NCBI GenBank assembly: GCA_030849805.1
Contig: JASANZ010002238.1
Location: forward strand, 1-64,000
Source: Sergeia podlipaevii
Taxonomy: Eukaryota; Euglenozoa; Kinetoplastea; Trypanosomatida; Trypanosomatidae
Reading direction: 5' to 3'
DNA length: 64,000 bases
Numbering within the stretch: the stretch's first letter is position 1; the number at the start of each line of letters is the position of its first letter. Positions 44,327-63,932 of the stretch are shown one piece after another. The notes under the pieces are model-generated. The model worked only from the letters and a program-made list of their open reading frames with translations. It searched no databases and was not told the DNA's origin. The position numbers and the translations under genes were made by a program.

Positions 44327-45113
44327 GTACTGCATTTACTGCACTGAAAAGGGAGTGAGATGTCTTCTTTTTTTTCTCTCCCTTTTTCTTTTTTTGATTC
44401 TTTTGTTGTGGGTGTCCCTTTCTCTTGATTTCTTGTTGTTGTTTTTTTTTTTTTTTTTTTTGAGACACATATATTGAATGATATGTGTTGTAATAATAAT
44501 CGAGTAGCTGCAAGGAGAAGAGCAATTACTTAGCTACAACAACCGAAAAAGGAACGAATCATGGAAAAGAAAAAAATTTGTTTTCATTACTAAACGTGTA
44601 GAAACAGATTTCTATGCGCTTTGCTATGAGCGAGTATCTACTTTTTTATGCAAAGAAATCTTTTAATTTGTTTATTTACATGGGAAGCTGTTTTCAACTG
44701 AAAGATAGCTTTTAGCGAACAACGCTTTATGTTTTGCTTTATGTTGCTTTGTGTTTGTCTACTTTCTTTCTTTCTTCCTTCCGAAAAGGAATATGAGTTT
44801 TTTTTTCACCACTAAGCTCTTATTTAGCCACATAGGAATTTAGTACTTCTCCTCAAATAGCAAAACGAAGTCCCTCTTTAACATTCGTGTTTGCACGTGG
44901 AGCGGAAGTGGAAGTGCCTATTCTGTGAATTTTTTAGCACCTACAGTTGGAGACTATACTTACCGCTCCTCGCACCTTTTCTGTTTGTCAAAACCTGTAG
45001 CTAGTACGCTGTCTTCTGCGAAGCGATCGTACGCAACTTCAAGCAGCACTGGTTCATTTCCGTCTTCCTCTTCTTCCACCGCATCTTCGTCATCCTTCCT
45101 CTTTGAAAGAAAC
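44327..45113 (+). other. spacer before PDE12-like gene
   Basis: No gene seen. A T19 run is near 44442. The reading frame of the next gene is open back to about 44925 but has no ATG there; that stretch is a pyrimidine-rich leader (45055-45104) with AG at 45108-45109, four bases before the chosen ATG. Confidence 0.5.
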
Positions 45114-47168
45114 ATGGATCGTTGGGCATCACGTAGAAAGACTGCCATCTCATCCTCTCCCTCCATGAAGAACTCCACAATGGTATCACGTGTTGCGTCA
45201 CGACGCAATACCGCCGCCGTCTTGCACCCGGAGAATAGCACGATTGTTTCTCTTGACTTGTGTTTTCAGACTTCTCCAGACTCGGACACTGTAATCACAA
45301 AGAGTCTGGTCAGGCAAGAACAGGGGGCAGCTGCCAAAACGCTTGATCGCATTCGTCTATTGTGTGCCCCAAAGCCGTCAAAACAGGCGGAGAGTGCGAA
45401 GAAATCGGCAGGCAAGTCTGTCGGTAAGGAGGAGCTGCTTGCTGCTTGCCCTCCTGTTTTTGTGCTTGGCGTGTCGAGTGACGAGGAGCAAGACTTGAAG
45501 CATAGCAGTATAGCGGGATCGTACGTCGAGCTGGACGCTTCGCTCAGCAACAGCGTGTTTTGGCGTCGCGCTCGTGTCCTTCGCATTGGTGCTGTGGAGG
45601 TGTCGGTGCACTACAACATCCCCGTTATCACCAGCATCACCCCTCCAAGCAAACCCTTTGTTGGGCTTCCTGTGGTCTGCGCGAACATCACCACCCTTTT
45701 CACCACCGCCGATGATCTGTACTACGAATGGTGCGTCAAGGATGTCAACGCAGATGCAGCGAAGGATGACCTGCGCGTGGTGTCTACCAACGCTGTTTTG
45801 GTGCCTACCTCAGAATTGCTTGGGAAAACACTCACGCTGCGCGTTACACCAGATAAGGAAACTGGCGTGTGGACGCAGGTGGCGCTGCCTCCAGTTCAAA
45901 TGCCACCTCCACCCGTGGAGCGCTGGTCTGAAACAACAACACGTGCTGAGTACCCGGCGTTTCGCGTCACCACATACAACATTCTTTATGATGGCTTCTG
46001 TGCCGCTCGTCGCAGTCGCATGAAGATCTACCCCTTTGCCACCGATGAGGTCCTCGCCATTGAAAATCGGCAGGTGCGCATTTTACAAGAGCTACTGGCA
46101 TGCAACACTGATATTATCTGTCTTCAGGAATGTGGCAAGACTCTATTTAATGAGTTCATGTATCCAGCATTGCACGCATGCGGGTTTGATGGTGTCTACC
46201 ACAACAAAATGGGCAGTGCACAGGAAGGGTGCGGGTTTTTCCTTCGCGCGGAGCGTTTCGAACTCGTCGAAACGCAGCTGGTTCCTCTTAACTGGTCAAC
46301 GATAGAGAAGCGAACGCCAGAGACTGCGGCGGTAATTGCAGAGCAGCACGTTGGGCTGAAGGAGGCTCTAGAGCACATCACATCCATCGCCACTATCTTC
46401 ACACTGCGCGAGAGGAATACGGGAAAGGAGGTGGTGGTTGGTAACACTCATTTGTTCTATCACGCCAATGCCTGTCACATTCGCATTCTTCAGACCTATA
46501 TATACCTTTTGACTCTTCAAGAAGCTTCCAATGCTCCTTGCAGCAACCCGTCGGCATCTTCAGCGGAGCACACACGGCCTATTGTACTGTGCGGGGACTG
46601 CAATTTTACGCACACAACAGGCGCATATCGGCTGGTGTCCACTGGGCAGGTCGAGGCGGAGCATCACTCATGGCAGAAAGGAAAACTATTCTACTGGGGT
46701 TGCGATCGACAGCTTGGCTACAATGAGGATGAGGCGGAAGAACTCATGGCGGCGACTGACAACAAGAGCGGAGGTGGAAATAGTGCTGAGACAGATGCGA
46801 AGAAGAAAGCGGTTACCACCTCTACGTCGGTTGCTATTGCGACGGAAGGGACAGATGCAGAGAGCAAAGCAGCTACTGTAGCAGAGGCTCGCCCACCTCT
46901 TGAAAAGTGGTACCACACCACCCTGCGTGCTCCGTTCCGTCTGACAGATGCATACGACCGCACTGACCCATCAATGCCATGGACGAACTACACAATGACC
47001 TTTCGTGAGGTAATTGACTACATTTTTTTTTCTGAAGACACCCTTGATGTGCTGCGCACGGTGCCCATTCCACCAGAGTCAGAGCTCTCTGAGAACTATG
47101 CTCTCCCGAATGCTAAGTACCCATCTGATCATGTGGCGCTCATTGCAGACCTTGCATTCAAGAAGTAG
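45114..47168 (+). CDS. PDE12-like endonuclease/exonuclease/phosphatase-family nuclease
   Basis: 684 residues. It starts MDRWASRRKTAISSSPSMK, a Ser/Arg-rich, mostly acid-free segment compatible with mitochondrial import. The C-terminal EEP domain (about 283-684) has RVTTYNILYDGFC, the metal-binding Glu339 in CLQECGK, GNTHLFYHANACHIRILQ, Asp495/Asn497 in CGDCNF, and the terminal SDHVALIADL with His673. The arrangement, the ELLACNTDIICLQE block and the YALPNAKYPSDH ending match PDE12/2'-phosphodiesterase more than CCR4. Human PDE12 is mitochondrial and trims poly(A) and 2',5'-oligoadenylate. The middle region (about 130-280) resembles the beta-rich N-terminal part of PDE12. A Lys/Ala/Thr-rich insert (about 565-600) interrupts the catalytic domain. 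Role in mitochondrial RNA turnover is inferred. Stop is TAG. Confidence 0.82.
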   Translation: MDRWASRRKTAISSSPSMKNSTMVSRVASRRNTAAVLHPENSTIVSLDLCFQTSPDSDTVITKSLVRQEQGAAAKTLDRIRLLCAPKPSKQAESAKKSAGKSVGKEELLAACPPVFVLGVSSDEEQDLKHSSIAGSYVELDASLSNSVFWRRARVLRIGAVEVSVHYNIPVITSITPPSKPFVGLPVVCANITTLFTTADDLYYEWCVKDVNADAAKDDLRVVSTNAVLVPTSELLGKTLTLRVTPDKETGVWTQVALPPVQMPPPPVERWSETTTRAEYPAFRVTTYNILYDGFCAARRSRMKIYPFATDEVLAIENRQVRILQELLACNTDIICLQECGKTLFNEFMYPALHACGFDGVYHNKMGSAQEGCGFFLRAERFELVETQLVPLNWSTIEKRTPETAAVIAEQHVGLKEALEHITSIATIFTLRERNTGKEVVVGNTHLFYHANACHIRILQTYIYLLTLQEASNAPCSNPSASSAEHTRPIVLCGDCNFTHTTGAYRLVSTGQVEAEHHSWQKGKLFYWGCDRQLGYNEDEAEELMAATDNKSGGGNSAETDAKKKAVTTSTSVAIATEGTDAESKAATVAEARPPLEKWYHTTLRAPFRLTDAYDRTDPSMPWTNYTMTFREVIDYIFFSEDTLDVLRTVPIPPESELSENYALPNAKYPSDHVALIADLAFKK

Positions 47169-47283
47169 CAGAGGACACACTTGCACGACTATGCGGCTCT
47201 CTGGTGTATAAAAGATGAAAGGTGTGTGAGAGAGGAGGAGGTTGAATGATTTTGCTGCTGGTAAACGTTTCAAATGGGCGTCT

Positions 47284-47319
<36 letters not shown>

Positions 47320-48034
47320 TTTTTACCGAGAATATTATGAGTATAGCGATAAAATTTATCTAATGCTCGTGTTTCTTGTGTTTTTGGAGTGTTTGTATAT
47401 CTTGCTTTGTGTACTTCTTTTCTTACTTGCTTCTTCTCAAATATCTTTTTTTCTACTCATATTTTGCCTCTTTTTTTATTATTTATTTTTATCGCAAAAG
47501 TCAGCGAACGGAGCAACACGTACAGGAAGCAATTGGCAAATACAGATTGCCAGCACGCCGACCTGTCAAATTGCGAAGTGTTCGCTTACGCACACTGTGC
47601 TATTATATTTTACTTTCTGATTTAACATATTATTCTTACTTTAACAATATAGATTCCTTTCCTAGAACGTGTTTATATATACCTGTAGAATCGCGTCTAT
47701 CCTGGTGTTGTGCCTAAAGGAAAACACCACTTCTTTCAATTATTGGTGCAGCTTGGAACGTCAGAGGAATAAAGAAGCTGAGAGTAGCAACACAAGTTTA
47801 AATTGAAAAGGAAAATAGGGCAGAATAAACTTGGAATCAGGTGCATTAGATCGCTGTGTGAGTTTTCTTTTTTAACAAAAATAATACATATATATGATTA
47901 TATTATATTTCAAGTTTTGGTAGATAGTTCATTGTATTCTCACTTCAGTACTGATACTTTTTGATGTGGTTGTTCTCATCAATATAAATTGGTATTTTAG
48001 TGAGTACTTTTTTTCTCCTTTCCAGCCTTTTCAA
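47169..48034 (+). other. spacer with (TA)n and a GC-richer island
   Basis: (TA)16 lies at 47287-47318. A stretch at about 47497-47600 is clearly less T-rich than its surroundings and holds two perfect short hairpins (see the separate entry). A TTTTTTTCTCCTTTCCAG tract with AG at about 48024 is a strong acceptor just before the next ATG. Confidence 0.5.
47534..47585 (+). other. two adjacent perfect hairpins in spacer, possible structured RNA
   Basis: Hairpin 1: TGGCAA (47534-47539), seven-base loop, TTGCCA (47547-47552). Hairpin 2: GCGAA (47573-47577), loop GTG, TTCGC (47581-47585). They lie in a GC-richer island between two T-rich blocks. No known RNA family recognised; the pairs could also be chance. 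Confidence 0.3.
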
Positions 48035-51000
48035 ATGCCAAACGAGAAAAGCGTGTTCGAGCCTTACACAGCACCACTGTCGTGTAGTTTATCGCTTTTT
48101 TGCCAGCGAAACTTACGCCAGTGTGCGCGACTACATGAGGGCGAACTGTTCCCGAAAAGCAGCTCGAACGTTGGAGGCTTTGACAGCCTATCAGAGGGCC
48201 CCTCTAGTCTCCAGTACTCCTCTCCACATGAAGTTCTTCATCACGTGCCTGAGGACATCACATCCCTCTCCGCTTTTCAGTTAACCTCTCTGTCCTCGCA
48301 GCTGGGTGGTGTAGTCGATAGTAGTGCGCTGATGACACTTAACAATAGCAGCGTAAAGACAAGAGGCACTTCTGGCAAAGATGCCACAACTACTTCTGTC
48401 CTTTCCAGAAAGGCCCCGAAGAGGCACGCAAGTAACAGCAGTAGCAACAGGTCGTGCTTGGCCACAGCGGGTGGGACAGAGAGAGACTCTCAACTGCCGT
48501 GCGGGATCAGCGTGAGTGGGGAGAGGACGGACGCGAGCAGTTCCATAAAGCAGACCTTTACGCATTCGTCAACGTCTGCCTGTGGCGTCCGCATTATGAA
48601 CGATGACGATGAGGGGGATGATGCCGAGGCAGATCATGCAAGCAATAAAGCTTATCATCGCAGCTCAGACGGACAGGAGACGACTCTCCGTATGAAGGTC
48701 TGCGAACCGGTGAGCAGTAACGACACTTCTCCAGACTGTTGCCCACCGCCAGCTGACAGTGCTTTCACCCCGCACAAGCACGAAAAGGAGTTGCATAAAA
48801 ATAGACGGCACATCCGCGATGTTGGTTGCCCGCCGCACTGCCGACTTACACCACCACCGTCAGCTGTGCTTGCGAGGCCTCCGGCAGACAATGACGAGTC
48901 GCATACAGAGAAGGTATTGTTCCCTGTTTACTCGCCTGGAGAATCTGCTAGAACAGGAGAGACCTTCTGCCTATCACAGTACATGGTGGCGCACACACCA
49001 CACAAACCTCGCAACGATGGGCGGCTTGCCGTGACGAGAAATCTCAGTTCACAGCGTGGTGACCCATTGCACATGCGGAATACCGTGGATGACGGCAAAG
49101 CAATGTGGACTTTAGAAAATAAGGGTAGCTGTGCTGTTGGCACCCAACATGACCACCGCGAGCAAACGCATGACGATCACCAAAGCGAGTACCGAGTACT
49201 ACGGGAAGCTGTCTCCTCTTCGTCACTATCTCACTTTCAGCCAAGTATGACACAGCTACCTTCGCCCGTCAGCGGCACTCCCCATCGACTGCCAGGTCAA
49301 CTATCGAGAGAGGATGACCCCCCTTTCTTCTACGCAACACATCAAGATTGGCTTGCAGCTTCGTATGTGTCCATGTGTCCTACACCCTCCAAGGAGCCCT
49401 GCACCATTAATGCTGGGTCTGAGGAGCGAGTGAGCGATGATGCTGCTCTCCTCACAGGCTTTCCATCCCCTGTGAAACTTTCTCCCATCCCTACAAAAAC
49501 CTACGGGGTGGCGACGGTTCTACGGCGTCAGCAACAATACTGTGGCGGCAGCAGTATCACCAGTACGCACCATCGCTCTCCCTCTGCACTGCAGCCATCT
49601 GCCGCGGCTTCTCCTATCAAGGACAAGAACACTACTCCAAGGAAAGCATCAGGTGAAAGCGGATTGAGGGAGGCTCTAGAAGTGCCTGCCCCTCCTGCCG
49701 TCATGAACCGCAATGACAGCTTGCGCGCTACTTTCAAGTGCGAGATATACTCGACCCAGACCCCGCCACGTGAGCCAGGTCCGAACTTCCAGACGACCAT
49801 CTGGCCAACGAATTTGTCAGCGGCTGGTGCAAGGCCTGCAGCAGCAACACCATCACCTCGACCGCAACAAGAGCAGAAGCAGCAGCACCTTCACTGTGGA
49901 AGCAGCGTCACAAACAGTACCACAGCTACGAGTGCCTGTGCAGAAAATATGAACACCGCAACGACGCTCAACTCCAGATCGGTCACTGCCATATATCCCT
50001 TTGGGTTAAGTGGCACCGTCATCAACAGTTCTCTACTGCACACCTCTCACATGGAAGGAGGTTCTAGTATTTTTCTGGCTACACAATCAGTCAAACAGTG
50101 CAGCACTAGCAACACCGTCACTCCGGCGAGTGCTGCAATGGCGAAGACGACTAGTAGTAGTAGTAGTAGTAGTAGTACTGCGCTAAACCCTGCTGTTACC
50201 CCTGTGACAGTGGAGAAGGGTGGTGTTCTGAATAGCGAGGAAGCACATCGCAGTTCACTGGCCACACCGATGGTATCAGACATTCAGATGCCCTCCGCAA
50301 GTTGCCATTACAACACCAGCTCTTCGATTGTTCTTGGTACCGCATTGGCTAGTACTAATCAGTTGCCTGGCCACGTTGCTACTGATAAGCAGCAGAGCAT
50401 GACAACTATTAACACAAGCAATCCAGCCTCACAGCAGTACATTACTGCAAAACCTATCCCAGGCATGCTGACGATGGCTGCACACACTCCTCAGCCACCC
50501 TGTTACAGCAACACGGGTAGAAACAGCAGGAATAGTGATGATGCGGCGGGGGGCCGCCCTGTGCAGCAGCATTGCAGAAGTCACGTTCTCATGGCGCCAA
50601 CACCAGATGAACGAGCGCGATTTCGTGACCCTATGTCAGGGATGATACCCACGACTGAAGAAGCGCACGGCCAGCGTCCCAGTGATGCTGCTCCTCCTGG
50701 CATCAGCAGTTCTACGAGAGAAGTGCATCGAGGAACCGCAGTGACGGAGACGCTGTGTTACCGCGCTCTCTTTTCTTCCTTGCCTGCACCCGATAGAAGG
50801 GCAAGTCTGGACGTTTCCAGCGCTCATGCACTGCAGGAACACCGCAAACGCTACCACAGAAGCGCCGAATGTCACCGCTCCCATCACAATGACGTGGCGT
50901 CTGGTAAACTGGTCAGCAGCGCTGCCCCTGTCGCGCCTGCTTCTCCCTTGCCAAGAAAGCCCACTCGCAGTGCGCCGATGAGCATGGACGCATGTATTCC

Positions 51001-51073
51001 AAGTGACTTGCTACGCCCGTGGCGGCCCACTACAGGGACTTCTTCTACACACGCATTGGACAGCTGGCTTTGA
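48035..51073 (+). CDS. large Ser/Thr-rich, largely disordered protein, unknown
   Basis: 1012 residues from ATG 48035 (MPNEKSVFEPYTAPLSC), ten bases after a strong acceptor. The composition is dominated by Ser, Thr, Pro, Ala and His, with no membrane segment and no recognised domain. Short more complex islands may be binding motifs: DPPFFYATHQDWLAASYVSM (about 430), TFKCEIYSTQTPPREPGPNF (about 570), and ETLCYRALFSSLPAPDRRAS (about 905). Many SP/TP dipeptides, such as PTPSKEP and SPVKLSPIP, suggest proline-directed phosphorylation. An AGT repeat encodes nine Ser near residue 710. Probably a regulatory or scaffold protein; nothing more can be said. The stop TGA runs straight into a (TA)n tract. 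Confidence 0.72.
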   Translation: MPNEKSVFEPYTAPLSCSLSLFCQRNLRQCARLHEGELFPKSSSNVGGFDSLSEGPSSLQYSSPHEVLHHVPEDITSLSAFQLTSLSSQLGGVVDSSALMTLNNSSVKTRGTSGKDATTTSVLSRKAPKRHASNSSSNRSCLATAGGTERDSQLPCGISVSGERTDASSSIKQTFTHSSTSACGVRIMNDDDEGDDAEADHASNKAYHRSSDGQETTLRMKVCEPVSSNDTSPDCCPPPADSAFTPHKHEKELHKNRRHIRDVGCPPHCRLTPPPSAVLARPPADNDESHTEKVLFPVYSPGESARTGETFCLSQYMVAHTPHKPRNDGRLAVTRNLSSQRGDPLHMRNTVDDGKAMWTLENKGSCAVGTQHDHREQTHDDHQSEYRVLREAVSSSSLSHFQPSMTQLPSPVSGTPHRLPGQLSREDDPPFFYATHQDWLAASYVSMCPTPSKEPCTINAGSEERVSDDAALLTGFPSPVKLSPIPTKTYGVATVLRRQQQYCGGSSITSTHHRSPSALQPSAAASPIKDKNTTPRKASGESGLREALEVPAPPAVMNRNDSLRATFKCEIYSTQTPPREPGPNFQTTIWPTNLSAAGARPAAATPSPRPQQEQKQQHLHCGSSVTNSTTATSACAENMNTATTLNSRSVTAIYPFGLSGTVINSSLLHTSHMEGGSSIFLATQSVKQCSTSNTVTPASAAMAKTTSSSSSSSSTALNPAVTPVTVEKGGVLNSEEAHRSSLATPMVSDIQMPSASCHYNTSSSIVLGTALASTNQLPGHVATDKQQSMTTINTSNPASQQYITAKPIPGMLTMAAHTPQPPCYSNTGRNSRNSDDAAGGRPVQQHCRSHVLMAPTPDERARFRDPMSGMIPTTEEAHGQRPSDAAPPGISSSTREVHRGTAVTETLCYRALFSSLPAPDRRASLDVSSAHALQEHRKRYHRSAECHRSHHNDVASGKLVSSAAPVAPASPLPRKPTRSAPMSMDACIPSDLLRPWRPTTGTSSTHALDSWL

Positions 51074-52135
51074 TATATATATATAGTGTATCTAGATCTC
51101 GGTAGCTTGAATACGCTCCTTCTTGTTGGTCTTTTCCTCTTTTTTTTTGCCGTACATAGTGGTGCTGCTGCCTTGAGCGATGGGTGTATATATATATCAA
51201 AACCAAGACAACTGAATCGTGCTTTTTTTTTATCCTTTGTTCTTTTTTTATTGTTATTATTTAATTGTTTTTCCCCCCTCATAGACACACAAACCTTAAC
51301 ATATATATATATGCGAAATGTTTTTTCCTGAAGTTTATTAAACACTACAAAAGTGTATAGAAGCACCATGCAAGCGGCGAGAGTCAGTGAGTTGCAGTTT
51401 ATTTTTTTTTTCTCCGAATTTGAATCATTCCCTTTGTCTTCGTTTTGTAATGTACTGTTGTGTCAAATGTCACTTTAGTATAAGTAGAAGTGTTGGAATT
51501 TATGTGTCATTCAACACTGCAAATATATATTTATATATATATTGAAGACAAAAAAAAAAAAAATAACGCCAACAGCGAAACTGTGCATTACAATCGATTG
51601 TAGTGAAAGAAATTGTACTAGAAGCACGAAGCTGATCTCAACCACTTGAAATGTCAATGAAGCTGCATTACTTTTTTTTTTTTTTCCGAACGTGTGTGCC
51701 TAAGGTGCCTCTGCGCTGGTATCAATTTATCACGCAGTCTCGACTGAAGAGAGTATTTCTGCTCCAGTTACATCTATTTACTTATCTCCTTTTATCTTTT
51801 TTTTTTTTCATTTCTTTCCGTTGCGCTCTTCAAAATAATAATAATTTAAAGGCACTTGACTCTCTGGCGCACACACACGCGCGTATCTAAAGGGGATTTC
51901 TCCCCCGCTCTGTGCAAGTGTATAGTTCTACCGCCGTAAGCTCACAGATAGGGGGTGTTTTGTAAATCACCTCTTTGCCGCTGTTGTTCAATGTGAGCAT
52001 AGAATATTTAAGCATATACATCTATAAAGGCTTGAGTGCCAGATATAGAGTTATTCCACAAAGCCGAGAGAACACGTACCTCATTGAAAAAGGGACGGGA
52101 AACATTTTTTTTAGTTGCTGTTAAGTAGATTCACC
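51074..52135 (+). other. spacer before CorA gene
   Basis: No gene seen. A short (TA)n starts at the stop codon (51073-51085), with further TA-rich stretches near 51301 and 51523-51542. Candidate acceptor for the next gene is AG at 52113-52114 after T8, 22 bases before the ATG. Confidence 0.5.
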
Positions 52136-54712
52136 ATGCGCAACTTTTCTTCTATAGCATTGCAGCGCACTCAGCAAAACATGCTTTTTGTTACTGGGAG
52201 GCGGTGTGCTTTTCTACGTCCTACTCGGCGAAACCCCCAGCTTCATCGCTTTTCTTGTTCGGCTCTCTGCTTATGTAAACGGTGGCACACAACAGCCGCA
52301 GGCCCCACTGCTAGGGACGATATACTACCAGCACAAAGCAGCAACAAGAAAGAAGAAGGGGCAAACATGGAAACAGGAAATGCTCACAAAGAATCAGCGA
52401 TGGAGGTGTCCACGCACATTACCGCTCATGAGGCCACACAGGTAGTACCCGCTGGCGACCACGTCATCAAGGATTCAGATTGCATTGAGAGCAGCACGGC
52501 AGCTGCTACCACCGCTGACGCGCTCCCCCCAACTCAGTCCAAACTCCCACAGGAACCCGAAGTGAGCAGCAAAGCACCACTGTCTGCTGCTGCTTCTGCC
52601 TCCACAAAGCTGGCGTCGGGTGAAGATTCAGTGTCGCACGCATTCACACCAGAAGCCGATGACGCTGCTTCTGCGGAGACTACAGAGCCGAAAAAGGATC
52701 CATTGGATGAGGCGGAGCGGGGCACGGAGATAGATGATAGCGAAGATGAGCTGCTTACGTACGGCCGCAAGGCACACACAGATGCACAACGCAAGATGGA
52801 ACAGGCGAAGCGCTTACGGGAGGCTGAGGCGCACTTGGCATTTGCCGAACTTATGGCTCCAGAGACCATCAACAAGTACGTTGACATGACAGAGGTGTCC
52901 ACAGTATCGGGCATTCGATGGCTCGACATTTGCGCCAAGTCGTCGTTCAGAAACAGTAAACTATTGAGCAAACAAGGAGAAGGCAGCTTCGCGGCATCGG
53001 TGCTGCACGCACTACACGGCAGCAGCGTGCCCGCTGACCTTTACGTGAGCATTTCCAACGGAAGCCCGTTGCCCACCGTGCATATAGAGGAGAACTGGGT
53101 GTGTATGGTGTTGCGAGTCTCACGAGAGGCAACACGTGGGTATGTGGAGCACAACCAAACTATCGGCACTGCTTCAAGATCGAGAGGGCAGCAACAGAAG
53201 GAGTACGCAGCGCGTTACGCAGAGGCGCTCTACAGTTCTAGCTCTAGTGAGCGCCACGCGCAGGACATGTCGACACGACGCCGGCGGTACAAAATGTGGG
53301 CCAGGCGGAATATGACGGGATCAGATGCAGACGGTACTGGCCTTTGTGGTTTGGGTGAAACAGGAAATCTTGGCGAAACCTTTATATCATCACCACCTGC
53401 TGGGGATTCTTTTATCGCTGGAAGCACTGATCCCTCCGAGCGATTCCGCTACGATGAATCCACAAATCAATACTTACAGGTAAAGAAATCACGATGGGAG
53501 CGCTTTCTGGAGGAGCGGGGAAACAAAGAGAAGCTTCATCGGAAGCTGCGGGAGCATGACAAGAAAGCTAGTAAACGGCGTATACGCGCGACGAAAGGGG
53601 TGGGGGCCGCTCTTCAGCGCGAACTTGGTGCCCCGACATTGACCGATCTTACCGATCGGTTGAGCGTATTTATCTACAAGGAACTGCACCCCATCGAGGA
53701 AGAAGGCGTAGAGCTGCCGATGAAGGAAGCCGATGTGCAAGATGTTACAAAACTAGTTCTCATGGAAATGGATGAGCACGGCAACGTCATTAGCCACTAT
53801 GTTGAGCACTCCACCTCTGAGGAGAAGGCGGCGCTACGCAAGAGCGGCAGCAGTAAAGGTGGTGGGAAGGGACAGGTGAAATCGGGAACTGCAGATACCA
53901 AGCTTGAAACAGTAACGAATGCATCCTCGGCGAGTGAAGGAGAAGAAGAGGGAGGAGATGTCAAGACACAAGCAAAACGCTACCACACCCGCTGGCGCAT
54001 CATCACAGTGCATCGCGTTCCGGTGCCTTTCATTGAAGATGCCATGCGACGCTGGCCGGATCTTATTATGTCTCGCAGGCCAACTGCGGATGTTGGTGGC
54101 GTGCAGCACCTCCACCACCCAGCGATATCCGGCTGGGAAGATATTGCACGTCTTATCTTTAATGGCACCGCGGGTGGACTTCAGGAGTCCACCTATCGCA
54201 ACACTCGTTTGCTAGAGCAGCTGGAGATGGAGATATTTAGCCCCGGTGATTCCACTGGAGATCAACTGAAGCACATGACCACGATGATGGCGCAGCTACA
54301 CACCTTGAACCGACGTGCGACTATTTACTCTTCGAATTTGCGAGAGATGAAGGTGACATTTACAAAGCTCAAAACTACCCTCAACTCACCGCTCACCGCT
54401 GCAGACAAGAAGGCGCTGACATATCTGCAAGGGTCTCTCTCGCTCGCAGCGCATCTGGAGGAGCACACCAAATCGCTGCTGTTCTTGCAGTTCTCGGTGG
54501 CAATGAGCCGAATGGAGGATCACCTGCGCACCCTCACCCTCTTCTCTACACTTTTTATTCCACTGGACTTCATTGCCTCTTTCTTTGGCATGAACTTTCA
54601 TCACATGGATAGTTATAGGAACAGTTCAGCTGCTGCGTACTCTGTGCTGGCATTGATTGGTGTGACGGCGCTCGCGGTCGGACGATGGATCAGAAAAAAT
54701 CTACGTCGATGA
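52136..54712 (+). CDS. mitochondrial CorA/MRS2-type Mg2+ channel with long N-terminal region
   Basis: 858 residues from ATG 52136. The first 55 residues are Arg/Ser-rich with no acidic residue (MRNFSSIALQRTQQN ... CKRWHTTAAGP), a clear mitochondrial presequence. The C-terminus has the CorA signature: TM1 ending in the G-M-N triplet (Gly818-Met819-Asn820, FFGMNF), a short loop, TM2 (AYSVLALIGVTALAVGRWI) and a basic tail. The preceding helical region (about 700-800, LEQLEMEIFSPGD ... LSLAAHLEEHTKSLLFLQF) is the stalk helix of the pentamer. About 600 residues before it, including Ala/Ser/Glu-rich stretches, a Lys/Arg-rich segment (LREHDKKASKRRIRATKG) and a Gly/Ser/Lys patch, have no counterpart in the roughly 320-residue bacterial proteins. 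CorA-type proteins move Mg2+ into the matrix. Stop is TGA. Confidence 0.87.
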   Translation: MRNFSSIALQRTQQNMLFVTGRRCAFLRPTRRNPQLHRFSCSALCLCKRWHTTAAGPTARDDILPAQSSNKKEEGANMETGNAHKESAMEVSTHITAHEATQVVPAGDHVIKDSDCIESSTAAATTADALPPTQSKLPQEPEVSSKAPLSAAASASTKLASGEDSVSHAFTPEADDAASAETTEPKKDPLDEAERGTEIDDSEDELLTYGRKAHTDAQRKMEQAKRLREAEAHLAFAELMAPETINKYVDMTEVSTVSGIRWLDICAKSSFRNSKLLSKQGEGSFAASVLHALHGSSVPADLYVSISNGSPLPTVHIEENWVCMVLRVSREATRGYVEHNQTIGTASRSRGQQQKEYAARYAEALYSSSSSERHAQDMSTRRRRYKMWARRNMTGSDADGTGLCGLGETGNLGETFISSPPAGDSFIAGSTDPSERFRYDESTNQYLQVKKSRWERFLEERGNKEKLHRKLREHDKKASKRRIRATKGVGAALQRELGAPTLTDLTDRLSVFIYKELHPIEEEGVELPMKEADVQDVTKLVLMEMDEHGNVISHYVEHSTSEEKAALRKSGSSKGGGKGQVKSGTADTKLETVTNASSASEGEEEGGDVKTQAKRYHTRWRIITVHRVPVPFIEDAMRRWPDLIMSRRPTADVGGVQHLHHPAISGWEDIARLIFNGTAGGLQESTYRNTRLLEQLEMEIFSPGDSTGDQLKHMTTMMAQLHTLNRRATIYSSNLREMKVTFTKLKTTLNSPLTAADKKALTYLQGSLSLAAHLEEHTKSLLFLQFSVAMSRMEDHLRTLTLFSTLFIPLDFIASFFGMNFHHMDSYRNSSAAAYSVLALIGVTALAVGRWIRKNLRR

Positions 54713-55280
54713 AAAAAAAAAGATCGATTAAAAGAAGACCGTTTTGCTGTGAGCACCTCTTTTTGTGTGTGTAGTAATGAAGATTTTTTATTTTGGATGC
54801 GTTCTATTGTATACTTACGATTTTGTACAGTGCTCTTTCACCTTCTCTCCTCTTGTTGTTGCTTTCTATAGTTGAATGATTTCAAGAATGGAGAAGTAAA
54901 AATAAGATGATTTTTTTTATGGTTGCGTGATGCTTTTTTTTTCCCCCCTAATCCTGGTATATATCCCTTTTTTTTGATTGCGAGCAAACAACAACAACAG
55001 TAAAGTTAACAGACTTAGATCGAGCACAGCGATTTCCTAAAACTGGTTTGTGTGTAGAATGCGCTTTCATTGCTTTTAATGTTTTTGTTATTATACTATA
55101 TATGAGCAGTGCTTGCCTTCCCGCTTTTTTTTTTGCCGTTCTTTAGGTTTTTCAACATTTCCACATTTTAGCAAATAGTTTTCTTTTTTTTTCTTTAGCG
55201 AGACAGATATACTGAAAACCGAGGAGAAATAAGAGAGGTGCGACGAGAGCATTATAAAGAAAAAAAGTCGCCGTTCAACA
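54713..55280 (+). other. spacer before PDI gene
   Basis: No gene seen. The acceptor for PDI is likely AG at 55197-55198 after TTTTCTTTTTTTTTCTTT, 83 bases before the ATG. Confidence 0.5.
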
Positions 55281-56546
55281 ATGTTGAGGTCTGCGGTTGC
55301 GCCGCTTGTGATGGCGTTGCTGGTGTGCGTTGTTAGTGTTACACCTTGCTATGCTGCCTCCGGCCTCTTTTCCAAGACATCCGATGTACAGGAGTTGACG
55401 CCCAAGTCGCTCCCCTACTTTGTCGACACTCACAAACCCGTTATGATTCTCTTTTATGCTCCGTGGTGTGGTCACTGCAAACAGCTGCACCCCGAGTACG
55501 AGAAGTTTGCAGAAGCTGTCAAAGGCATCATGCGTGTTGGCGCTATCAATGCCGATGAATACGCTTCCTTGGGACAACAATATGGTGTGCGTGGATTCCC
55601 AACACTCAAGTACTGGAAGATGGGGCCCAAGACGGTCAACTCTCCAGAGGAGTATCAGGGTCCTCGCACCGCCACCGCACTGCAAGCATCCATGACGCAG
55701 GGCATCATCCCTGATCGAGTTAAAGTACTGACAGATGTGCGGCAGCTGCAGGCAGTGCTGGCGAATGCTCCAAAGCAAATGGTTGGTGCGCTTTTCTCCT
55801 CCAAGGACAAGGTGGCGCCACTGCTCTCTGTGTTAGCTTACTCCAAACGCCTAGAGCAAATGCCTATTGTGTTCATCAAGGATGAGAAAGGTGCGCGCGA
55901 TGTGTTTAAGATTGATGTCTTTCCTACTGTCGCGGTGCTGAATCTTAACGGAACAGAGTATGTCACCGTGACATATGCGGATAAGGTCAACTACGATGCG
56001 ATTGCAAAGTTCTTTGTTGGATGCCTAGAGAACGGATGTAACGGCGAGTCCGCAGAAAACAAGGAAGGTGGAGCGAAAAAGACGTTGCTCGATGAACAAC
56101 AAGCTCCCGTGGATGGTGAGGGGAGTACGCGCATCAAGAAGGCGCGTTTCGCTGTACCGCCGTCTCCAGAGGCCTTTACGCATGAGACTTTATCTCGATA
56201 CTGCTCGCCGAGCACACAGAAAATTCGGTCCAACTCCCCGCTCTGCGTTCTTGTGGCGTCCAAGAACATTAATCTTGATGAACTGCACGCGCAGTTTCAG
56301 CGTGACCCCGTCGTGATCATTGACGCCAAGGAAGATCCAGGCTTACTGGGAAGGAGTCTGGAGGACACTGTTGGGGTGTCACTTACGAAAGGTCCAGCGC
56401 TGACAGCGGTGGTGGTGTTGCGGCACTCGAAGCCGACGCTAGTTCGCTACATGGAGTTACACACGACAGAGACGACTGTGGTTGCTGAGGCGCTCCAGAA
56501 GATTCTCACTGGCGATATACGCCTGGACTCAAAGACAATCGAATAG
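55281..56546 (+). CDS. protein disulfide isomerase with one active thioredoxin domain
   Basis: 421 residues. Signal peptide about 1-25 (MLRSAVAPLVMALLVCVVSV then CYAA). Thioredoxin domain about 28-135 with active site WCGHC (Cys63, Cys66) and the cis-proline segment GVRGFPTLKYW, close to P5/PDIA6-type PDIs. A second, redox-inactive thioredoxin-like region (about 145-255) has VFPTVAVLNL but no CxxC. The C-terminal part (about 260-421) is Glu/Lys-rich, then a third possible fold. The protein forms or rearranges disulfides in secretory proteins. It ends DSKTIE, with no KDEL-like ER retention signal, so its retention or final location is open. Stop is TAG. Confidence 0.9.
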   Translation: MLRSAVAPLVMALLVCVVSVTPCYAASGLFSKTSDVQELTPKSLPYFVDTHKPVMILFYAPWCGHCKQLHPEYEKFAEAVKGIMRVGAINADEYASLGQQYGVRGFPTLKYWKMGPKTVNSPEEYQGPRTATALQASMTQGIIPDRVKVLTDVRQLQAVLANAPKQMVGALFSSKDKVAPLLSVLAYSKRLEQMPIVFIKDEKGARDVFKIDVFPTVAVLNLNGTEYVTVTYADKVNYDAIAKFFVGCLENGCNGESAENKEGGAKKTLLDEQQAPVDGEGSTRIKKARFAVPPSPEAFTHETLSRYCSPSTQKIRSNSPLCVLVASKNINLDELHAQFQRDPVVIIDAKEDPGLLGRSLEDTVGVSLTKGPALTAVVVLRHSKPTLVRYMELHTTETTVVAEALQKILTGDIRLDSKTIE

Positions 56547-58505: not shown

Positions 58506-61500
58506 ATGGGCAACGGATTGTGTGGCGGATCATTTTCTGCCGAACCACATCAAATTGGTGGTGTACTGCGGCCCTCACATATGGAACCTGATCGCACCTC
58601 AACCCGCGCACCACCCGCACGAAGCAATAAAGGTTCTGTAAGCGGCAGCTTCAAAGGTAGGGTAGGTAGTGGTGCAGACATCGGTAGTGATGACCGTGCA
58701 CCCGCGTCCCCAACCAACACGACACGAGTATGCAATACGAACAGCGACAGCGTGAATCCAATGACCGTGGCGAGATCAACCGATGTGAATGTGGGACCGA
58801 AGCAGATACCGTTGCAGCAACAGCAGCAGCTTTCTGCTTCTTATCAGCCCCCTTCACTAATGCCCTCTTTAGTAACCCGAAGTAATAGCAGTGTAGCGAC
58901 AACTGTTGCAGCGGCTGCTCCCTCTGCGCCTTTCAGTTTAAGCGACGCGCATTCCCCGGATACCCATCTTCAAACGCAAAATGGACTACAATTGGTGGAT
59001 GCACTCAACACGCAACTTGGGGAAGAGATAGAGAGCACGTACGGTGCCGACGAAGAGGAGGAGGAGGATGTAGCAGCAGAAGCGCGTTTATCGAAACGTG
59101 CTCTTCATATTATTCGCCGTGTAGATGAAGTAATTCGCACTTGCACAGGCGAAACAGCGGAGGAACCCACTGAAGATGAACTTGCCATGTTTGAAGTCTT
59201 TACGAGCCTCCGGAACAGTCCTATTGGCCCACTATTTGTCAATCACCCTGAGGTATCCCTATCGAATCGGTCCTGTGTTATCACTACACCTGATTTCCAC
59301 CAAAGTGAACCGATTGACGGCTACTTGCTGCGTGGAGCGTACAATCCTGGCACTATTGGCCGTAGCTACTTTGCCACCAAAGAGAAGGACTACTTTCTCC
59401 CAACGGAGTCTGCTTGGGCGAGTGCTGGCGGTAGTAACGGTGTGGCTGCTGGGTCATCTGGTGGAACTGGGACGACTACCTCCTGCTCCAGTGGCTTCGG
59501 CCCTTATACGAGCAACCTCGCTGCGATGCACGCGAATTCTGCTAGTAAAACAAACCGATTGCTGCGAACTCGCAGTAACCTCGCGGCTCCTCCAGCTTCA
59601 CAGGACACGCCTCACGACTTTCAGCAGGGAAGTAGTACAGCCCATGGCATGTGTGTTCTTAAGGCGGTGAGCTTTGTCTTGCGCAAGGATGCACTTGAGC
59701 AGGTGATTGCAGAGCAGCGTGCGCTGGTGAACCTCAATCATGACAATGTTCTGAAGGTGTGGGATGTGTTGAACGACGAATACCAGGAGAATATGATTGT
59801 GGTAGCCAACTACCACCCCAAGGGAAACATTTGCGCCTACGCGGGTACGCTTGACAACGACGGAGAGAAGTTCTGTCATATAGTGGCTGAGATTGGTGTC
59901 GGTCTGCGTGTTCTTCACTCACACCGCATTTATCACCACAATCTTAAGTTGGACAACATTCTGGAGACCACGGAGGGACACTACTGCATCGCGGACGCTG
60001 GTTTCTCTCGACTATTTACCACGCAATGCCCAGAGGCCCTAGTGTTTAACGGCGAGCTCGCCTGTTTGCCACCTGAAGTGTTCGATGAAAACGGATCCTA
60101 TGCGGACGATAGTGTGAAACCGGGTGGCGGCATGCTTGGCGCTAGTGGGCCTGGCTTTAGCATTGGTGGCGCTGCCACTTCGTCCATGCGTCTAGGCGAA
60201 GGCTCTTCCTCACGAGGCTTTTCCGCTGCCACCAGCCAAACCGGTGGCGCCGGGCCATCCATAGAAGTGAATGAGGCGGACACGATCAGCCGCCAGCAGA
60301 GCAGCGTCACCGGGGCTACCGCTGCGTCTTCCACGAACAACAACACAACAGTGTTAGGTGCTAGCAGCGTGGGGTTTAGCGGTGTTGGAGGAGGCTTATC
60401 GTTGTCGTTCGCTGCAGAGAGTAAGGTGGATATATGGGGATTTGGTGTGCTCATGTACCGCCTTGCCTTTGGCAAGGACCCGTTTGAAATTGCTGAGTGC
60501 TCCTACGAGGAAGTACGCGAACGCGTCGTGTCAAGCAATCTACAGTTTCCTCACGGTCCATGGTCGTTCTCGCGTGAGCTTGAGGTGGTGATTGCGGCCT
60601 GTTTAGAGAAGAACCCACAGGATCGACCGACAATTCTGCGCCTTCTTCGATATCCCTTCTTCAAGGATTGTATGGCTCAGAGCTTCTTTTCAGGGCGGAA
60701 CGTGTCCATGATGGGTGCCGGCATTGGGAATGGGATATGGATGGGCGGAGGGCCGAGAAGATCCAGCATCGGCGGTGGCGTCAACTTTGCTTCCCCTCTA
60801 AGTAACACGTCCAACATAATGGGGGGAGCGAACAGCATCAGCAACAACATAAGTGGCCGTGCTCAGTTTGTGTGTGCCTCACAGTCGGTTGGGCAGCCCT
60901 TCCATCACTCGCTTCATCAACAGCAAACTCAGCAGATGGCACATGACCGCAACGGTTACCTCGTTGTACGCACACTCGGTCACGGCAGATGCACTGAAAC
61001 GCTTCTTGTGCATCTCCGTCGTGATCCAAACCACTTCTTTGCGTTCAAAATTGTCACCAAGTCAGTTTTGCTGCGCATGCAGAAGGAGGCAGAACGGCAA
61101 AAGTTAGAGGGAAACGCGAGCAGTACCCCACGTGCGCGGGAGATCAAGACTGCGCTCGCCGTGTGTAAGAAAGCACGCCACCCAAATATTCTCCCGCTTC
61201 TTGACATTGTGGATGGCAGAGGCAGTGACTGCTTTGCCGTGCAGGAATACATGCAAGACGGCCCTCTCACTGAGATCCCGCCGCTGGCGGCACCCTCCTC
61301 TTCGTCCTTGGTAGCGGCAGAATCAATTCAGTCCGCAGCACCTGCAGCGGCGGCTGTTGCCTGTAACTTCAATCGCCGCAGGAGTAGCAGCCACAGTGTA
61401 AGCAAGGAGGCTAGTGCCAGCGGTAGAAGCAACGTACCGCCACCGACACTGCAGAAGCTTCTGAGAGATGTCTTGGCTGGGCTCATTCACTTGCACGATA

Positions 61501-63932
61501 ACGGCGTTGCGCATTTGTGTTTGCTGCCAACCAACATTTTCTATTGCAAAAACACTGGGAACTTCAGAATTGCCGACTTTGGGCCTCTCTTTCTAACTGT
61601 AGAGGAGCTGATGGAGGCAGAGGCGGAGGGTAGCCCGATCTACTCGCTGCCGGACCGCATTCTCAGTCAAAAGCGATACAACTGTTTTCTCATTGACACT
61701 CTCTTCGTGGGTCTTCTTGCCGCGTCTATTGTACCTGATGTATTCAACAATGTATGGAGTCAGTTGATCTGCGTTCCCGGGTATGGTCGTGTCTCCACCG
61801 ATGCCATTCTTGTGTCACTCAACGCACCGCCGAATCACTTGCCACCACAGCTCTGTGACTTCGTTATGGTTGCTCTTACAACGGACTGCACAGCCCGACA
61901 ACTCTACCAGCACCACTTCTTGGCGGAAGATGGGGTAGTTCCAAGCGTAGAAGGAGCAGCAGCAATGAGGATGGTTCCTCCGGTAGTGAAGATTGAGATT
62001 TCCGCGGAGGAGCTGGAGAAGGCGGTGATGCCTCGTCCCGCTTTGCGGGATGAGAATCGTATGCGCGAGGTGCTGGGGCATGACCCGTTTCAAGATAGTC
62101 AGATGCTCAGCTCTATGTTTGATCTTCTTACAGAAGACGTTGGCTCTGCGAGCATCGCTGGTGCTGGCGATCGGTCTATTGCCATGTCTTTCCGCGGTGC
62201 CAACCTTCGTTGCGGGCAATGCAACGCTGAAGTGCCTGTGGCGCTGTACACGTGCCCAGACTGCTATGATGTGGTGCGCTGTGGTAAGTGCGCTGTCAAC
62301 GACGCCCACGCAGACGGTCACTCTCTAGTTCTCTATGTGATTCACACTATTGAAGTTGGCGGAAACGGCGAGAGCCGCGCGGTACTTGTCCACCCCTCCG
62401 CCATTCACGATGTGCACGCGCTCGAAACGCTGGAAATGTCTGCGAACTTTCCGGTTGGTTCGCTCTCAGCTCACCTGACTAATCAGCGAGCGATGGAGCG
62501 ATCTTTGGCTCGCAGCATCGGTGGCACGACAGTGAGCAAGCTGTTCATGTCCACGCACTCGTCTGGAGATTCCGACGGGATGGAAAGTACCTACTCTGTA
62601 GTCACAGAGAACATTATCAAGTGCCACGACAACACTCAAGGGTGGGTAATCCAGTTTCCTGCTATGAAGCGGGCAGCTCCAATGAAACCTGGGCTTTTGA
62701 TGAAGTCCACGTCGATGATGAAGACGACCCCCAAGCGTGTTGCCCTCCCCAAAGAAGAGGAGCTCATGGAAGACGAGACGTGGCAGCAGGAACTCGAAAA
62801 GTGCCGCGATGGTGTGTCGAACGAGCTATTACTGTACAACTACAACTTGGAGGAGGTCCCAATGGACATCTACAATCCACCCCCTCTGAATGTGGTGGAG
62901 TTAGATCTTTCGCAAAACTGCCTCACAGATCTTCCCCACGAGCTAAGTTTCCTTGTCAATTTGCGCAAGATGGTGGTGTCATACAACAGGCTCATTGAGC
63001 TCCCCGAAAGTTTAGGCAATCTACAAAATCTTGAAACTTTTGACGCGAGCCACAACATGCTTACTGATTTACCCCAGACATTTATCTACCTCACGAACCT
63101 GGAGAGCATTGCGATGGATTACAATAATTGTAAGTGCATTCCTGACTGCCTTCTCGAGATTGTGGCACCACCGAGTTGTGATCTTGGCATGACGAAGATG
63201 TTGGAAAGAGCATCCTTGTCTACATCGGTGACAACTGTGTCAAATTTGAACGCACACGACGAGCCTTCACCACGTCTTAGCATTATCTACCTTGCCGCAA
63301 ACGATAACTTGGACATTTTCCCTGACGAAGAACGTCTCAAACGTTTTCGATCTCTCAAGATCGCGCTTGACAACGAGCCGTCGCTTTACAAACACTACAT
63401 GAGCCGTCAGCTAGAGACAACACTTCCGAGTGTCACTGTGAACTGGAACAAAATTTATCCAGACGAGATTATTCCGCATCTGTACTGTGGCAGTCTACGC
63501 TCCGCCCAGTCACAGATTGTGTACGAAAAGCTGAAGATTAGCTACGTCCTTACTGTTGGGCGTGGTCTACTTCCGGTGCCACCGGAGGGAGGCAAACACC
63601 AGGTGATCATCGTGGACGATATCCCCGGTGCTGACATCTTCATTTCCATTCAAGAGGCAGTTGACTTTATTGATGAAAGCCAACAAAATGGTGTTGGTTG
63701 CTTGGTACATTGCTTTGCTGGTCTCTCTCGCTCTGCCACCACTGTCATTGCCTACTTGATGATGCGCAAGAACATGCGTTTGGATGAGGCATATCTGGTG
63801 ACGAAGAAAGGTCGTCCAGCTATCTTGCCTAACAAGGGCTTCTTTGAGCAGCTTGTTCAGCTCGACAAGAAGCTCTTCCCAGGGGATGTGCGGCCACTCG
63901 ATTTTGCTTCCTTGGAACGTCCCCCGGAGTAG
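58506..63932 (+). CDS. N-acylated double-pseudokinase, ZZ-finger, LRR, dual-specificity phosphatase protein
   Basis: 1808 residues. MGNGLCGGS is a strong N-myristoylation signal (Gly2) with Cys6 for palmitoylation, so membrane or flagellar targeting is likely. Kinase-like domain 1 (about 375-725): Lys386 and DAG (Asp497) are kept, but HRD reads HHN, with Asn479 replacing the catalytic Asp; a Gly/Ser-rich insert of about 110 residues splits it. Kinase-like domain 2 (about 815-1140): Lys848 and DFG (Asp1024) are kept, but the catalytic loop reads HLCLLPTN (Cys1005 for Asp, Leu1007 for Lys). A ZZ-like zinc finger starts at Cys1236 (CGQC, CPDC, CGKC, then HADGH). Leucine-rich repeats span about 1461-1552. 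The dual-specificity phosphatase domain (about 1650-1795) has the intact active site HCFAGLSRS (Cys1736, Arg1742). Kinase-phosphatase fusions and LRR-phosphatases are known in trypanosomatids. The phosphatase is predicted active and the kinases regulatory. Confidence 0.9.
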   Translation: MGNGLCGGSFSAEPHQIGGVLRPSHMEPDRTSTRAPPARSNKGSVSGSFKGRVGSGADIGSDDRAPASPTNTTRVCNTNSDSVNPMTVARSTDVNVGPKQIPLQQQQQLSASYQPPSLMPSLVTRSNSSVATTVAAAAPSAPFSLSDAHSPDTHLQTQNGLQLVDALNTQLGEEIESTYGADEEEEEDVAAEARLSKRALHIIRRVDEVIRTCTGETAEEPTEDELAMFEVFTSLRNSPIGPLFVNHPEVSLSNRSCVITTPDFHQSEPIDGYLLRGAYNPGTIGRSYFATKEKDYFLPTESAWASAGGSNGVAAGSSGGTGTTTSCSSGFGPYTSNLAAMHANSASKTNRLLRTRSNLAAPPASQDTPHDFQQGSSTAHGMCVLKAVSFVLRKDALEQVIAEQRALVNLNHDNVLKVWDVLNDEYQENMIVVANYHPKGNICAYAGTLDNDGEKFCHIVAEIGVGLRVLHSHRIYHHNLKLDNILETTEGHYCIADAGFSRLFTTQCPEALVFNGELACLPPEVFDENGSYADDSVKPGGGMLGASGPGFSIGGAATSSMRLGEGSSSRGFSAATSQTGGAGPSIEVNEADTISRQQSSVTGATAASSTNNNTTVLGASSVGFSGVGGGLSLSFAAESKVDIWGFGVLMYRLAFGKDPFEIAECSYEEVRERVVSSNLQFPHGPWSFSRELEVVIAACLEKNPQDRPTILRLLRYPFFKDCMAQSFFSGRNVSMMGAGIGNGIWMGGGPRRSSIGGGVNFASPLSNTSNIMGGANSISNNISGRAQFVCASQSVGQPFHHSLHQQQTQQMAHDRNGYLVVRTLGHGRCTETLLVHLRRDPNHFFAFKIVTKSVLLRMQKEAERQKLEGNASSTPRAREIKTALAVCKKARHPNILPLLDIVDGRGSDCFAVQEYMQDGPLTEIPPLAAPSSSSLVAAESIQSAAPAAAAVACNFNRRRSSSHSVSKEASASGRSNVPPPTLQKLLRDVLAGLIHLHDNGVAHLCLLPTNIFYCKNTGNFRIADFGPLFLTVEELMEAEAEGSPIYSLPDRILSQKRYNCFLIDTLFVGLLAASIVPDVFNNVWSQLICVPGYGRVSTDAILVSLNAPPNHLPPQLCDFVMVALTTDCTARQLYQHHFLAEDGVVPSVEGAAAMRMVPPVVKIEISAEELEKAVMPRPALRDENRMREVLGHDPFQDSQMLSSMFDLLTEDVGSASIAGAGDRSIAMSFRGANLRCGQCNAEVPVALYTCPDCYDVVRCGKCAVNDAHADGHSLVLYVIHTIEVGGNGESRAVLVHPSAIHDVHALETLEMSANFPVGSLSAHLTNQRAMERSLARSIGGTTVSKLFMSTHSSGDSDGMESTYSVVTENIIKCHDNTQGWVIQFPAMKRAAPMKPGLLMKSTSMMKTTPKRVALPKEEELMEDETWQQELEKCRDGVSNELLLYNYNLEEVPMDIYNPPPLNVVELDLSQNCLTDLPHELSFLVNLRKMVVSYNRLIELPESLGNLQNLETFDASHNMLTDLPQTFIYLTNLESIAMDYNNCKCIPDCLLEIVAPPSCDLGMTKMLERASLSTSVTTVSNLNAHDEPSPRLSIIYLAANDNLDIFPDEERLKRFRSLKIALDNEPSLYKHYMSRQLETTLPSVTVNWNKIYPDEIIPHLYCGSLRSAQSQIVYEKLKISYVLTVGRGLLPVPPEGGKHQVIIVDDIPGADIFISIQEAVDFIDESQQNGVGCLVHCFAGLSRSATTVIAYLMMRKNMRLDEAYLVTKKGRPAILPNKGFFEQLVQLDKKLFPGDVRPLDFASLERPPE

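What the first reader, a model, noticed from the sequence alone, without database searches (positions are those of the whole stretch)
58506..63932. Two tandem pseudokinases, ZZ finger, LRR and an active-looking phosphatase on one acylated protein
Both kinase-like domains keep the ATP Lys and the DFG-type Asp but lack the catalytic Asp (Asn479, Cys1005), while the phosphatase CX5R is intact. An ATP-sensing, membrane-anchored phosphatase controlled by two pseudokinases would be an unusual signalling design. Kinase-phosphatase fusions are known in trypanosomatids, but the double-pseudokinase plus ZZ layout deserves attention.
Basis: partly seen in the sequence, partly recalled or inferred. Interest (0 to 1): 0.8.

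Follow-up and report, generated by a model that had tools for sequence, protein, structure and literature searches.

The report
Trypanosomatid kinatase: phosphatase with two pseudokinases
This is the known trypanosomatid 'kinatase', a phosphatase fused to two kinase-like domains that have lost their catalytic residue; comparison with relatives shows that both keep their nucleotide-binding residues and that a zinc finger, not mentioned in the descriptions I read, is part of the family.

Summary
But it is the orthologue of the 'kinatase' named in the 2007 TriTryp phosphatome paper, which already described two pseudokinases + LRR + phosphatase with the catalytic Asp lost; the Leishmania infantum orthologue was studied in 2026. 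What I add: (1) in 30 two-pseudokinase orthologues the core nucleotide-binding residues of both domains are among the most conserved columns; (2) the catalytic-Asp site is held as Asn in PK1 (28 of 30), as in JAK JH2, but drifts in PK2 (no Asp in 29); (3) eight zinc ligands are invariant (29 of 29) and their profile finds ZZ domains first in the PDB; (4) PK2 lacks the alphaC Glu (0 of 30); (5) one metagenomic orthologue (P0004) has Asp at the PK1 site, nested among Asn orthologues; (6) three distant relatives carry one kinase-like domain, clearly PK1-like in one. ATP control of the phosphatase is plausible but untested. Interest is modest.

The parts
58506..63932 (+). kinatase ORF, 1808 aa plus stop
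   Evidence: the only full-length match in the 23.4 Mb assembly
58506..58535 (+). N-terminal MGNGLC..., putative N-myristoylation (Gly2) and S-acylation (Cys6) signal
   Evidence: sequence; MG start in 24 of 33 family rows, Cys within residues 3-7 in 16 of those 24
59307..60677 (+). PK1, residues 268-724: pseudokinase with HHN for HRD and DAG for DFG, carrying Ser/Gly-rich insertions
   Evidence: Pfam Pkinase; family profile; K386, N479, D497
60951..61925 (+). PK2, residues 816-1140: pseudokinase with HLC for HRD, DFG intact, no alphaC Glu
   Evidence: CaMKK2 and CaMKK1 are the best PDB sequence hits; K848, A883, C1005, D1024
62196..62354 (+). ZZ-like zinc finger, residues 1231-1283, six Cys and two His
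   Evidence: eight ligands 29 of 29; profile ranks ZZ-bearing PDB chains first
62793..63305 (+). leucine-rich repeats, approximately residues 1430-1600
   Evidence: Pfam LRR_8, LRR_4; repeated strand-turn units in the model of window residues 800-1808
63462..63875 (+). dual-specificity phosphatase domain, residues 1653-1790; D1704/D1705, C1736, R1742
   Evidence: Pfam DSPc; catalytic residues 30 of 30; model resembles MKP-4, MKP5 and DUSP7

Best explanation
The gene encodes the kinatase of this trypanosomatid. Shown here: orthology, domain order, intact phosphatase residues, loss of the kinase catalytic Asp with retention of the core nucleotide/metal-binding residues, and an invariant zinc-ligand set. 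Inferred: the protein is tethered to a membrane by N-terminal acylation; the LRR and the two kinase-like domains act as docking and scaffold modules that bring a phosphorylated kinase (MAPK-like) to the C-terminal MKP-type phosphatase, which removes its phosphate; and the kinase-like domains bind nucleotide, mainly to hold a fold or conformation that controls docking rather than to transfer phosphate. Orthology is close to certain (about 0.97); the confidence given is for the mechanism as a whole.
For: Orthology: 27 of 45 hits carry kinase + LRR + DSP (24 with two kinase-like domains, one of these an incomplete model, and 3 with one), and adds 5; they include Leishmania, Leptomonas, Phytomonas, Strigomonas, Angomonas, Trypanosoma and Bodo, and the window lies in a trypanosomatid group with support 100/100. 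Nucleotide binding: PK1 K386 28 of 29 readable rows, N484 30 of 30, D497 30 of 30; PK2 K848 30 of 30, N1010 28 of 29, D1024 29 of 29. Five-residue sets (two glycines, Lys, Asn, Asp) are more conserved than random column sets of the same domain (1 of 20000 as low for PK1, 0 of 20000 for PK2); wider sets that include lost residues give 0 and 6 of 20000. No catalysis: PK1 site Asn in 28 of 30, PK2 site Asp in 0 of 29; P+1 Thr absent in 30 of 30 PK1 rows. Precedent: JAK JH2 has Asn at this position and binds ATP (PMC4718504, section 12 read). Phosphatase: Cys, Arg and both candidate general acids 30 of 30; MKP-like fold. MAPK-type role and SHOC2-like LRR: proposed in PMC2175518.
Against: No nucleotide binding, phosphatase activity, substrate or localisation has been measured here. 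The first Gly of the PK1 glycine loop is kept in 1 of 29 rows and the third Gly of PK2 in 1 of 30. Conserved Lys and DFG Asp can be kept for structure alone. Both models have pTM below 0.5, so domain contacts are unknown. Of three distant relatives with one kinase-like domain, P0028 reads NYG for DFG and Ser for the binding Asn (my reading of the sequence), so the pocket is not needed in every relative. Five Leptomonas-type N termini (MGV[TA]LKR) keep MG but fail the myristoylation pattern, as do Angomonas and T. cruzi.
Confidence: 0.55

Rival explanations
1. The two kinase-like domains are pure protein-binding scaffolds that do not bind nucleotide; the Lys and Asp are kept as a structural salt bridge.
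For: PK2 has lost the alphaC Glu (0 of 30) and, in most rows, the catalytic-loop Lys (4 Lys of 29); the pocket reads as degraded in the distant relative P0028 (sequence).
Against: The catalytic-loop Asn and two glycines, which a Lys-Asp bridge does not need, are also nearly invariant in both domains.
Confidence: 0.25
2. PK1 is a weak but real kinase, so the protein both adds and removes phosphate.
For: PK1 keeps Lys481, Asn484 and Asp497 in 30 of 30 rows; the catalytic site holds one residue type, Asn, in 28 of 30. JAK2 JH2 with Asn there has low activity. P0004 even has Asp there.
Against: No row has the P+1 Thr (0 of 30; Glu in 24); DFG Phe is replaced in 30 of 30, by Ala in 27; HRD Arg is kept in 2 of 30. 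JAK1 and TYK2 JH2 bind ATP without detected activity.
Confidence: 0.12
3. Nucleotide occupancy of PK1/PK2 acts as a switch that turns the phosphatase on or off.
For: Two conserved pockets on the same chain as an active-looking output domain.
Against: No evidence of coupling. In membrane guanylate cyclases, a pseudokinase plus output enzyme, the ATP effect was reassigned to the catalytic domain (PMC4718504 section 20 read). Micromolar affinities like those of JAK JH2 would leave the pocket always filled at cellular ATP (cell ATP level recalled).
Confidence: 0.2

Closest known systems
Kinatase subfamily of atypical DSPs (PMC2175518, 2007; LmjF34.2190 / LINF_340027100)
   Same: Two pseudokinases + LRR + DSP in one chain; catalytic Asp lost in all kinase-like domains; PK1 DFG altered; CaMKK among the nearest kinases (PK2 here; the best PDB sequence hit of PK1 is Aurora A); LRR likened to SHOC2; MKP-like phosphatase.
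   Different: Longer low-complexity N terminus and insertions than Trypanosoma rows. The ZZ finger is not mentioned in the main texts as searched (the bare word ZZ is too short to search, figures and supplements not seen).
JAK JH2 and HER3 pseudokinases
   Same: Asn in place of the catalytic Asp, with Lys, catalytic-loop Asn and DFG Asp (for JAK JH2, likened there to HER3; here).
   Different: PK1 keeps the Lys168 equivalent (30 of 30) and, in all 17 readable rows of trypanosomatids outside Trypanosoma, the alphaC Glu; the output is a phosphatase; the nearest sequences are Ser/Thr kinases.
Membrane guanylate cyclase pseudokinase domain
   Same: Pseudokinase with beta3-Lys-dependent ATP binding on the same chain as an output enzyme.
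   Different: One pseudokinase, transmembrane receptor, cyclase output; its ATP site has no settled function.
LRR-DSP of trypanosomatids
   Same: LRR followed by a related DSP; a likely paralogue lies at G000:C550:47275-48375.
   Different: No kinase-like domains in the published definition; the C550 frame is only 480 aa.

Membership tests
Kinatase (atypical DSP) | C-terminal DSP domain with intact CX5R | tested here: met
   DSPc E 1.1e-25; C1736, R1742 in 30 of 30
Kinatase (atypical DSP) | two kinase-like domains lacking the catalytic Asp | tested here: met
   N479, C1005; Pkinase 4 stretches; PDB sequence hits for each domain
Kinatase (atypical DSP) | leucine-rich repeats on the same chain | tested here: met
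   LRR_8 1.9e-09, between PK2 and DSP
Kinatase (atypical DSP) | groups in a tree with the Leishmania orthologues | tested here: met
   window within an 18-row trypanosomatid group, support 100/100, that includes Leishmania (32 rows, P0025 left out). That these Leishmania rows are the named kinatase rests on architecture and single-copy status in PMC13210143, not on an identity check to LmjF34.2190.
ZZ-type zinc finger | C2-C2-C2-H2 ligand pattern | tested here: met
   eight ligands 29 of 29 rows, 31 of 31 in A4 (P0025 and P0027 not in A4)
ZZ-type zinc finger | match to the Pfam ZZ model in the window protein itself | tested here: not met
   no ZZ hit for the window protein or fragment; 16 of 31 A4 members match at E <= 0.5. 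Hence 'ZZ-like'.
ZZ-type zinc finger | profile similarity to solved ZZ domains | tested here: met
   ZZ-bearing chains rank first, best E 8.3e-07; 51 sequences at E <= 5 include other zinc folds lower down
N-myristoylated protein | Met-Gly start fitting the NMT pattern, conserved | tested here: inconclusive
N-myristoylated protein | myristate attached in cells | not testable with these tools
   'kinatase' and 'dual specificity' do not occur in the main texts of the L. donovani and T. cruzi myristoylome papers; table rows and supplements not readable here
Nucleotide-binding pseudokinase | measured nucleotide binding | not testable with these tools
   only residue conservation tested

The most novel reading that the evidence does not exclude
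Kinatase is an ATP-gated, membrane-tethered MAPK phosphatase: two tandem pseudokinases, one held in a JAK-JH2-like Asn state and one free of catalytic constraint, read nucleotide (or a nucleotide-stabilised partner) and set the activity or docking of the phosphatase on the same chain, with a ZZ-like finger as a further, so far overlooked, recognition module.
Probability: 0.2. Interest if true: 0.65.

Novelty: new member of a known kind. Interest (0 to 1): 0.3.

Why it matters
The L. infantum orthologue is reported as probably essential in promastigotes, and changing its dose alters infectivity, peroxide sensitivity and antimony response (PMC13210143: part of the abstract and passages; section 26). 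In the parts read, its kinase-like half and zinc finger are not studied. The conserved binding residues and the zinc finger make definite questions testable on one protein: whether pseudokinases can control a phosphatase rather than a kinase, and whether nucleotide matters for it.

Tried and rejected
Chance or misread frame: rejected, one uninterrupted 1808-codon frame with strong family matches.

PK1 and PK2 as a recent tandem duplication: a direct BLASTP of the two window domains shows no meaningful similarity (best E 0.64). Each family profile recognises parts of the other domain weakly, as expected for two kinase folds. In the three one-kinase relatives the domain scores higher against PK1 than PK2 (91 vs 36, 39 vs 14 and 12 vs 9 bits), clear only for P0026. 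Whether PK2 was gained later or lost there is open.

P0004 as proof of an active family: rejected because it is nested among Asn orthologues and shares the Glu at the P+1 Thr site. The order of branches around the window and P0004 is unresolved (a fork drawn open).

Domain arrangement from AlphaFold models: rejected as evidence, pTM 0.49 (T. grayi orthologue P0020) and 0.48 (window residues 800-1808). Foldseek on the whole models lists kinases (CaMKK, Aurora, SIK, MARK and others) and MKP-type phosphatases in the 50 rows shown; none of those rows bears on the ZZ finger.

p62-like N-degron binding by the ZZ finger: considered only from memory. The acidic residues that I recall for p62 do not seem to be kept; no call tested this.

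A published T. brucei role: one RNAi paper (PMC7952579, passages) names a dual-specificity phosphatase and, separately, a pseudokinase; I found nothing tying either to the kinatase.

Rows dropped: 18 of 45 hits (P0029-P0046) show no DSPc and were left out, 3 of 18 (P0052-P0054) likewise. Both searches scored only the 7991 best candidates, so the family may be larger than counted. P0026-P0028 were left out of the 30-row counts because they aligned poorly. P0025 (an apparently incomplete Bodo gene model) has no residues from the PK2 catalytic loop through the ZZ finger and was left out of the tree, of A2-A4 and of the PK2 statistics; P0027 was left out of A4; P0017 lacks the start of PK1. One search prints one label (E208) a residue off; the APE Glu is E524, 30 of 30.

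Full report
What was claimed and what is there. The ORF at 58506-63932 is real: ATG start, 1808 codons, no interruption. Pfam finds kinase, LRR and dual-specificity phosphatase domains with strong scores. The window lies in a 23.4 Mb assembly of 576 contigs; the protein has one full-length match there, itself, and the next best is a 480-aa frame with LRR and DSP matches, probably the LRR-DSP paralogue.

It is a known protein. [quoted passage not shown] section 9 in full). Later reviews list it (PMC2994645, passages; PMC5743797, passages). In 2026 the L. infantum orthologue was studied: null mutants could not be obtained; overexpression slowed growth, while loss of one allele did not; both changes lowered metacyclic numbers and intracellular survival at 72 h; one-allele loss raised peroxide sensitivity and overexpression lowered antimony sensitivity (PMC13210143: 12 of 25 passages; section 26). 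That paper describes a single Pfam kinase domain. In its main text the words zinc and ZZ-type do not occur; in PMC2175518 ZZ-type does not occur and 'zinc finger' stands only in a list naming FYVE and PHD types. I cannot see figures or supplements, and one-word 'ZZ' is too short to search, so I do not claim that the finger is unpublished.

Relatives. A whole-length search gave 45 hits, of which 27 (P0002-P0028) carry kinase, LRR and DSP matches; a profile search added five from Trypanosoma. Both searches scored only the best 7991 candidates. Thirty rows (window, P0002-P0025, P0047-P0051) were aligned; P0026-P0028, with one kinase-like domain, were kept apart.

The kinase-like domains. PK1: beta3 Lys in 28 of 29 readable rows (Arg in P0024); catalytic-loop Lys, Asn and the DFG Asp 30 of 30 each; catalytic-Asp site Asn in 28, Asp in 1 (P0004), His in 1 (P0024). 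PK2: beta3 Lys 30 of 30, binding Asn 28 of 29, DFG Asp 29 of 29; catalytic-Asp site Ser, Cys, Asn, Tyr, Ile, Gly or Arg, never Asp, in 29 (all). In PK2 the alphaC Glu is gone in all 30 rows, seen also when the window domain is aligned to CaMKK2; in PK1 it is Glu in 17, Asp in 10, Ala in 2 of 29. Against full retention: the first glycine of the PK1 loop is kept in 1 of 29 rows and the third of PK2 in 1 of 30. The five core binding residues of each domain (two glycines, Lys, Asn, Asp) are more conserved than nearly all random five-column sets of the same domain: 1 of 20000 as low for PK1 and 0 of 20000 for PK2; with the wider sets, lost residues included, 0 of 20000 (9 positions) and 6 of 20000 (12 positions). 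All columns share the same rows, so shared ancestry alone does not explain it, but structural need could. The contrast at the catalytic site is the most telling: in PK1 about 15% of columns are more conserved than it, in PK2 about 58%. One residue kept that long suggests that the Asn does something. JAK JH2 carries the same substitution and is likened to HER3; JAK JH2 domains bind ATP, and only JAK2 JH2 is reported there with low activity (PMC4718504 section 12).

Could PK1 be active? The orthologue P0004 has Asp at the site. In the tree it lies in the trypanosomatid group outside Trypanosoma (18 rows, 100/100), among Asn rows, with Asn also in the Trypanosoma and Bodo rows; one change on its own branch is the simplest history. 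It still has Glu where active Ser/Thr kinases carry the P+1 Thr (recalled rule), as do 24 of 30 rows, none of which has Thr, and Cys for the DFG Phe. I therefore keep 'pseudokinase' for the family and carry weak activity as a rival.

The zinc finger. Six Cys and two His are invariant in 29 of 29 rows and in 31 of 31 when two one-kinase relatives (P0026, P0028) are added. P0027 was not in that set; its stretch scores only 7 bits against the family finger profile. The window protein itself does not match Pfam ZZ; 16 of 31 members match ZZ at E <= 0.5 and 16 match the UBR box, with best E 5.9e-06 and 0.014. A profile of the 31 ranks ZZ-bearing PDB chains first. I call it ZZ-like.

The phosphatase. 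Cys1736, Arg1742, Ser1743 and Asp1704/1705 are 30 of 30. The modelled domain resembles MKP-4, MKP5 and DUSP7 (TM-score by target 0.79-0.85 in the rows shown). Activity is likely; substrate is inference.

The N terminus. 24 of 33 rows begin MG; most of the other nine start inside the conserved core and look truncated. Five Leptomonas-type rows keep MG but fail the pattern; Angomonas and T. cruzi also fail it. Trypanosomatid PPEF shows that dual acylation of a phosphatase occurs (PMC2994645 passage).

Evolution. Three divergent relatives (P0026-P0028) have only one kinase-like domain before the zinc finger. All three score higher against the PK1 profile than the PK2 profile, clearly so only in P0026, which reads HGN, KLDN and DAG. 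So the PK1-type pseudokinase may be the older; gain or loss of PK2 is open, and these rows are long branches whose place is unsure.

How it works, graded. Shown: architecture, orthology, residue conservation. Likely: active phosphatase, no phosphotransfer by PK2. Inferred: membrane tether, docking of a phosphorylated kinase by LRR and pseudokinase modules, nucleotide binding. Untested: any control of the phosphatase by nucleotide. The models cannot help with that, since their pTM is under 0.5.

Verdict. A sound observation of a protein family published in 2007, with a few useful additions: a ZZ-like finger, and the held-Asn versus drifting-site contrast with conserved binding residues. New member of a known kind, interest 0.3.

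Noticed in passing
P0023, P0025 (Bodo saltans proteins): Two Bodo saltans kinatases carry the name 'GP46-like surface antigen', probably transferred from the leucine-rich repeats; the kinase + DSP architecture does not suggest a surface antigen.
   Followed up: partly
P0004, around HHDVKLDN: A metagenomic trypanosomatid orthologue has Asp at the PK1 catalytic site where 28 of 30 rows have Asn.
   Followed up: yes
   Followed up: partly
window 44925-56546, + strand: Upstream neighbours on the same strand look, by eye, like an endonuclease/exonuclease/phosphatase-type protein (44925-47168), a protein with a CorA-like C terminus (52115-54712) and a PDI-like thioredoxin protein with CGHC (55281-56546): an ordinary same-strand run (no family search done).
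   Followed up: no
G000:C550:47275-48375: Probable LRR + DSP paralogue in the same assembly; the search table counts one TAG inside its phosphatase match, which may just be the end of the gene.
   Followed up: no
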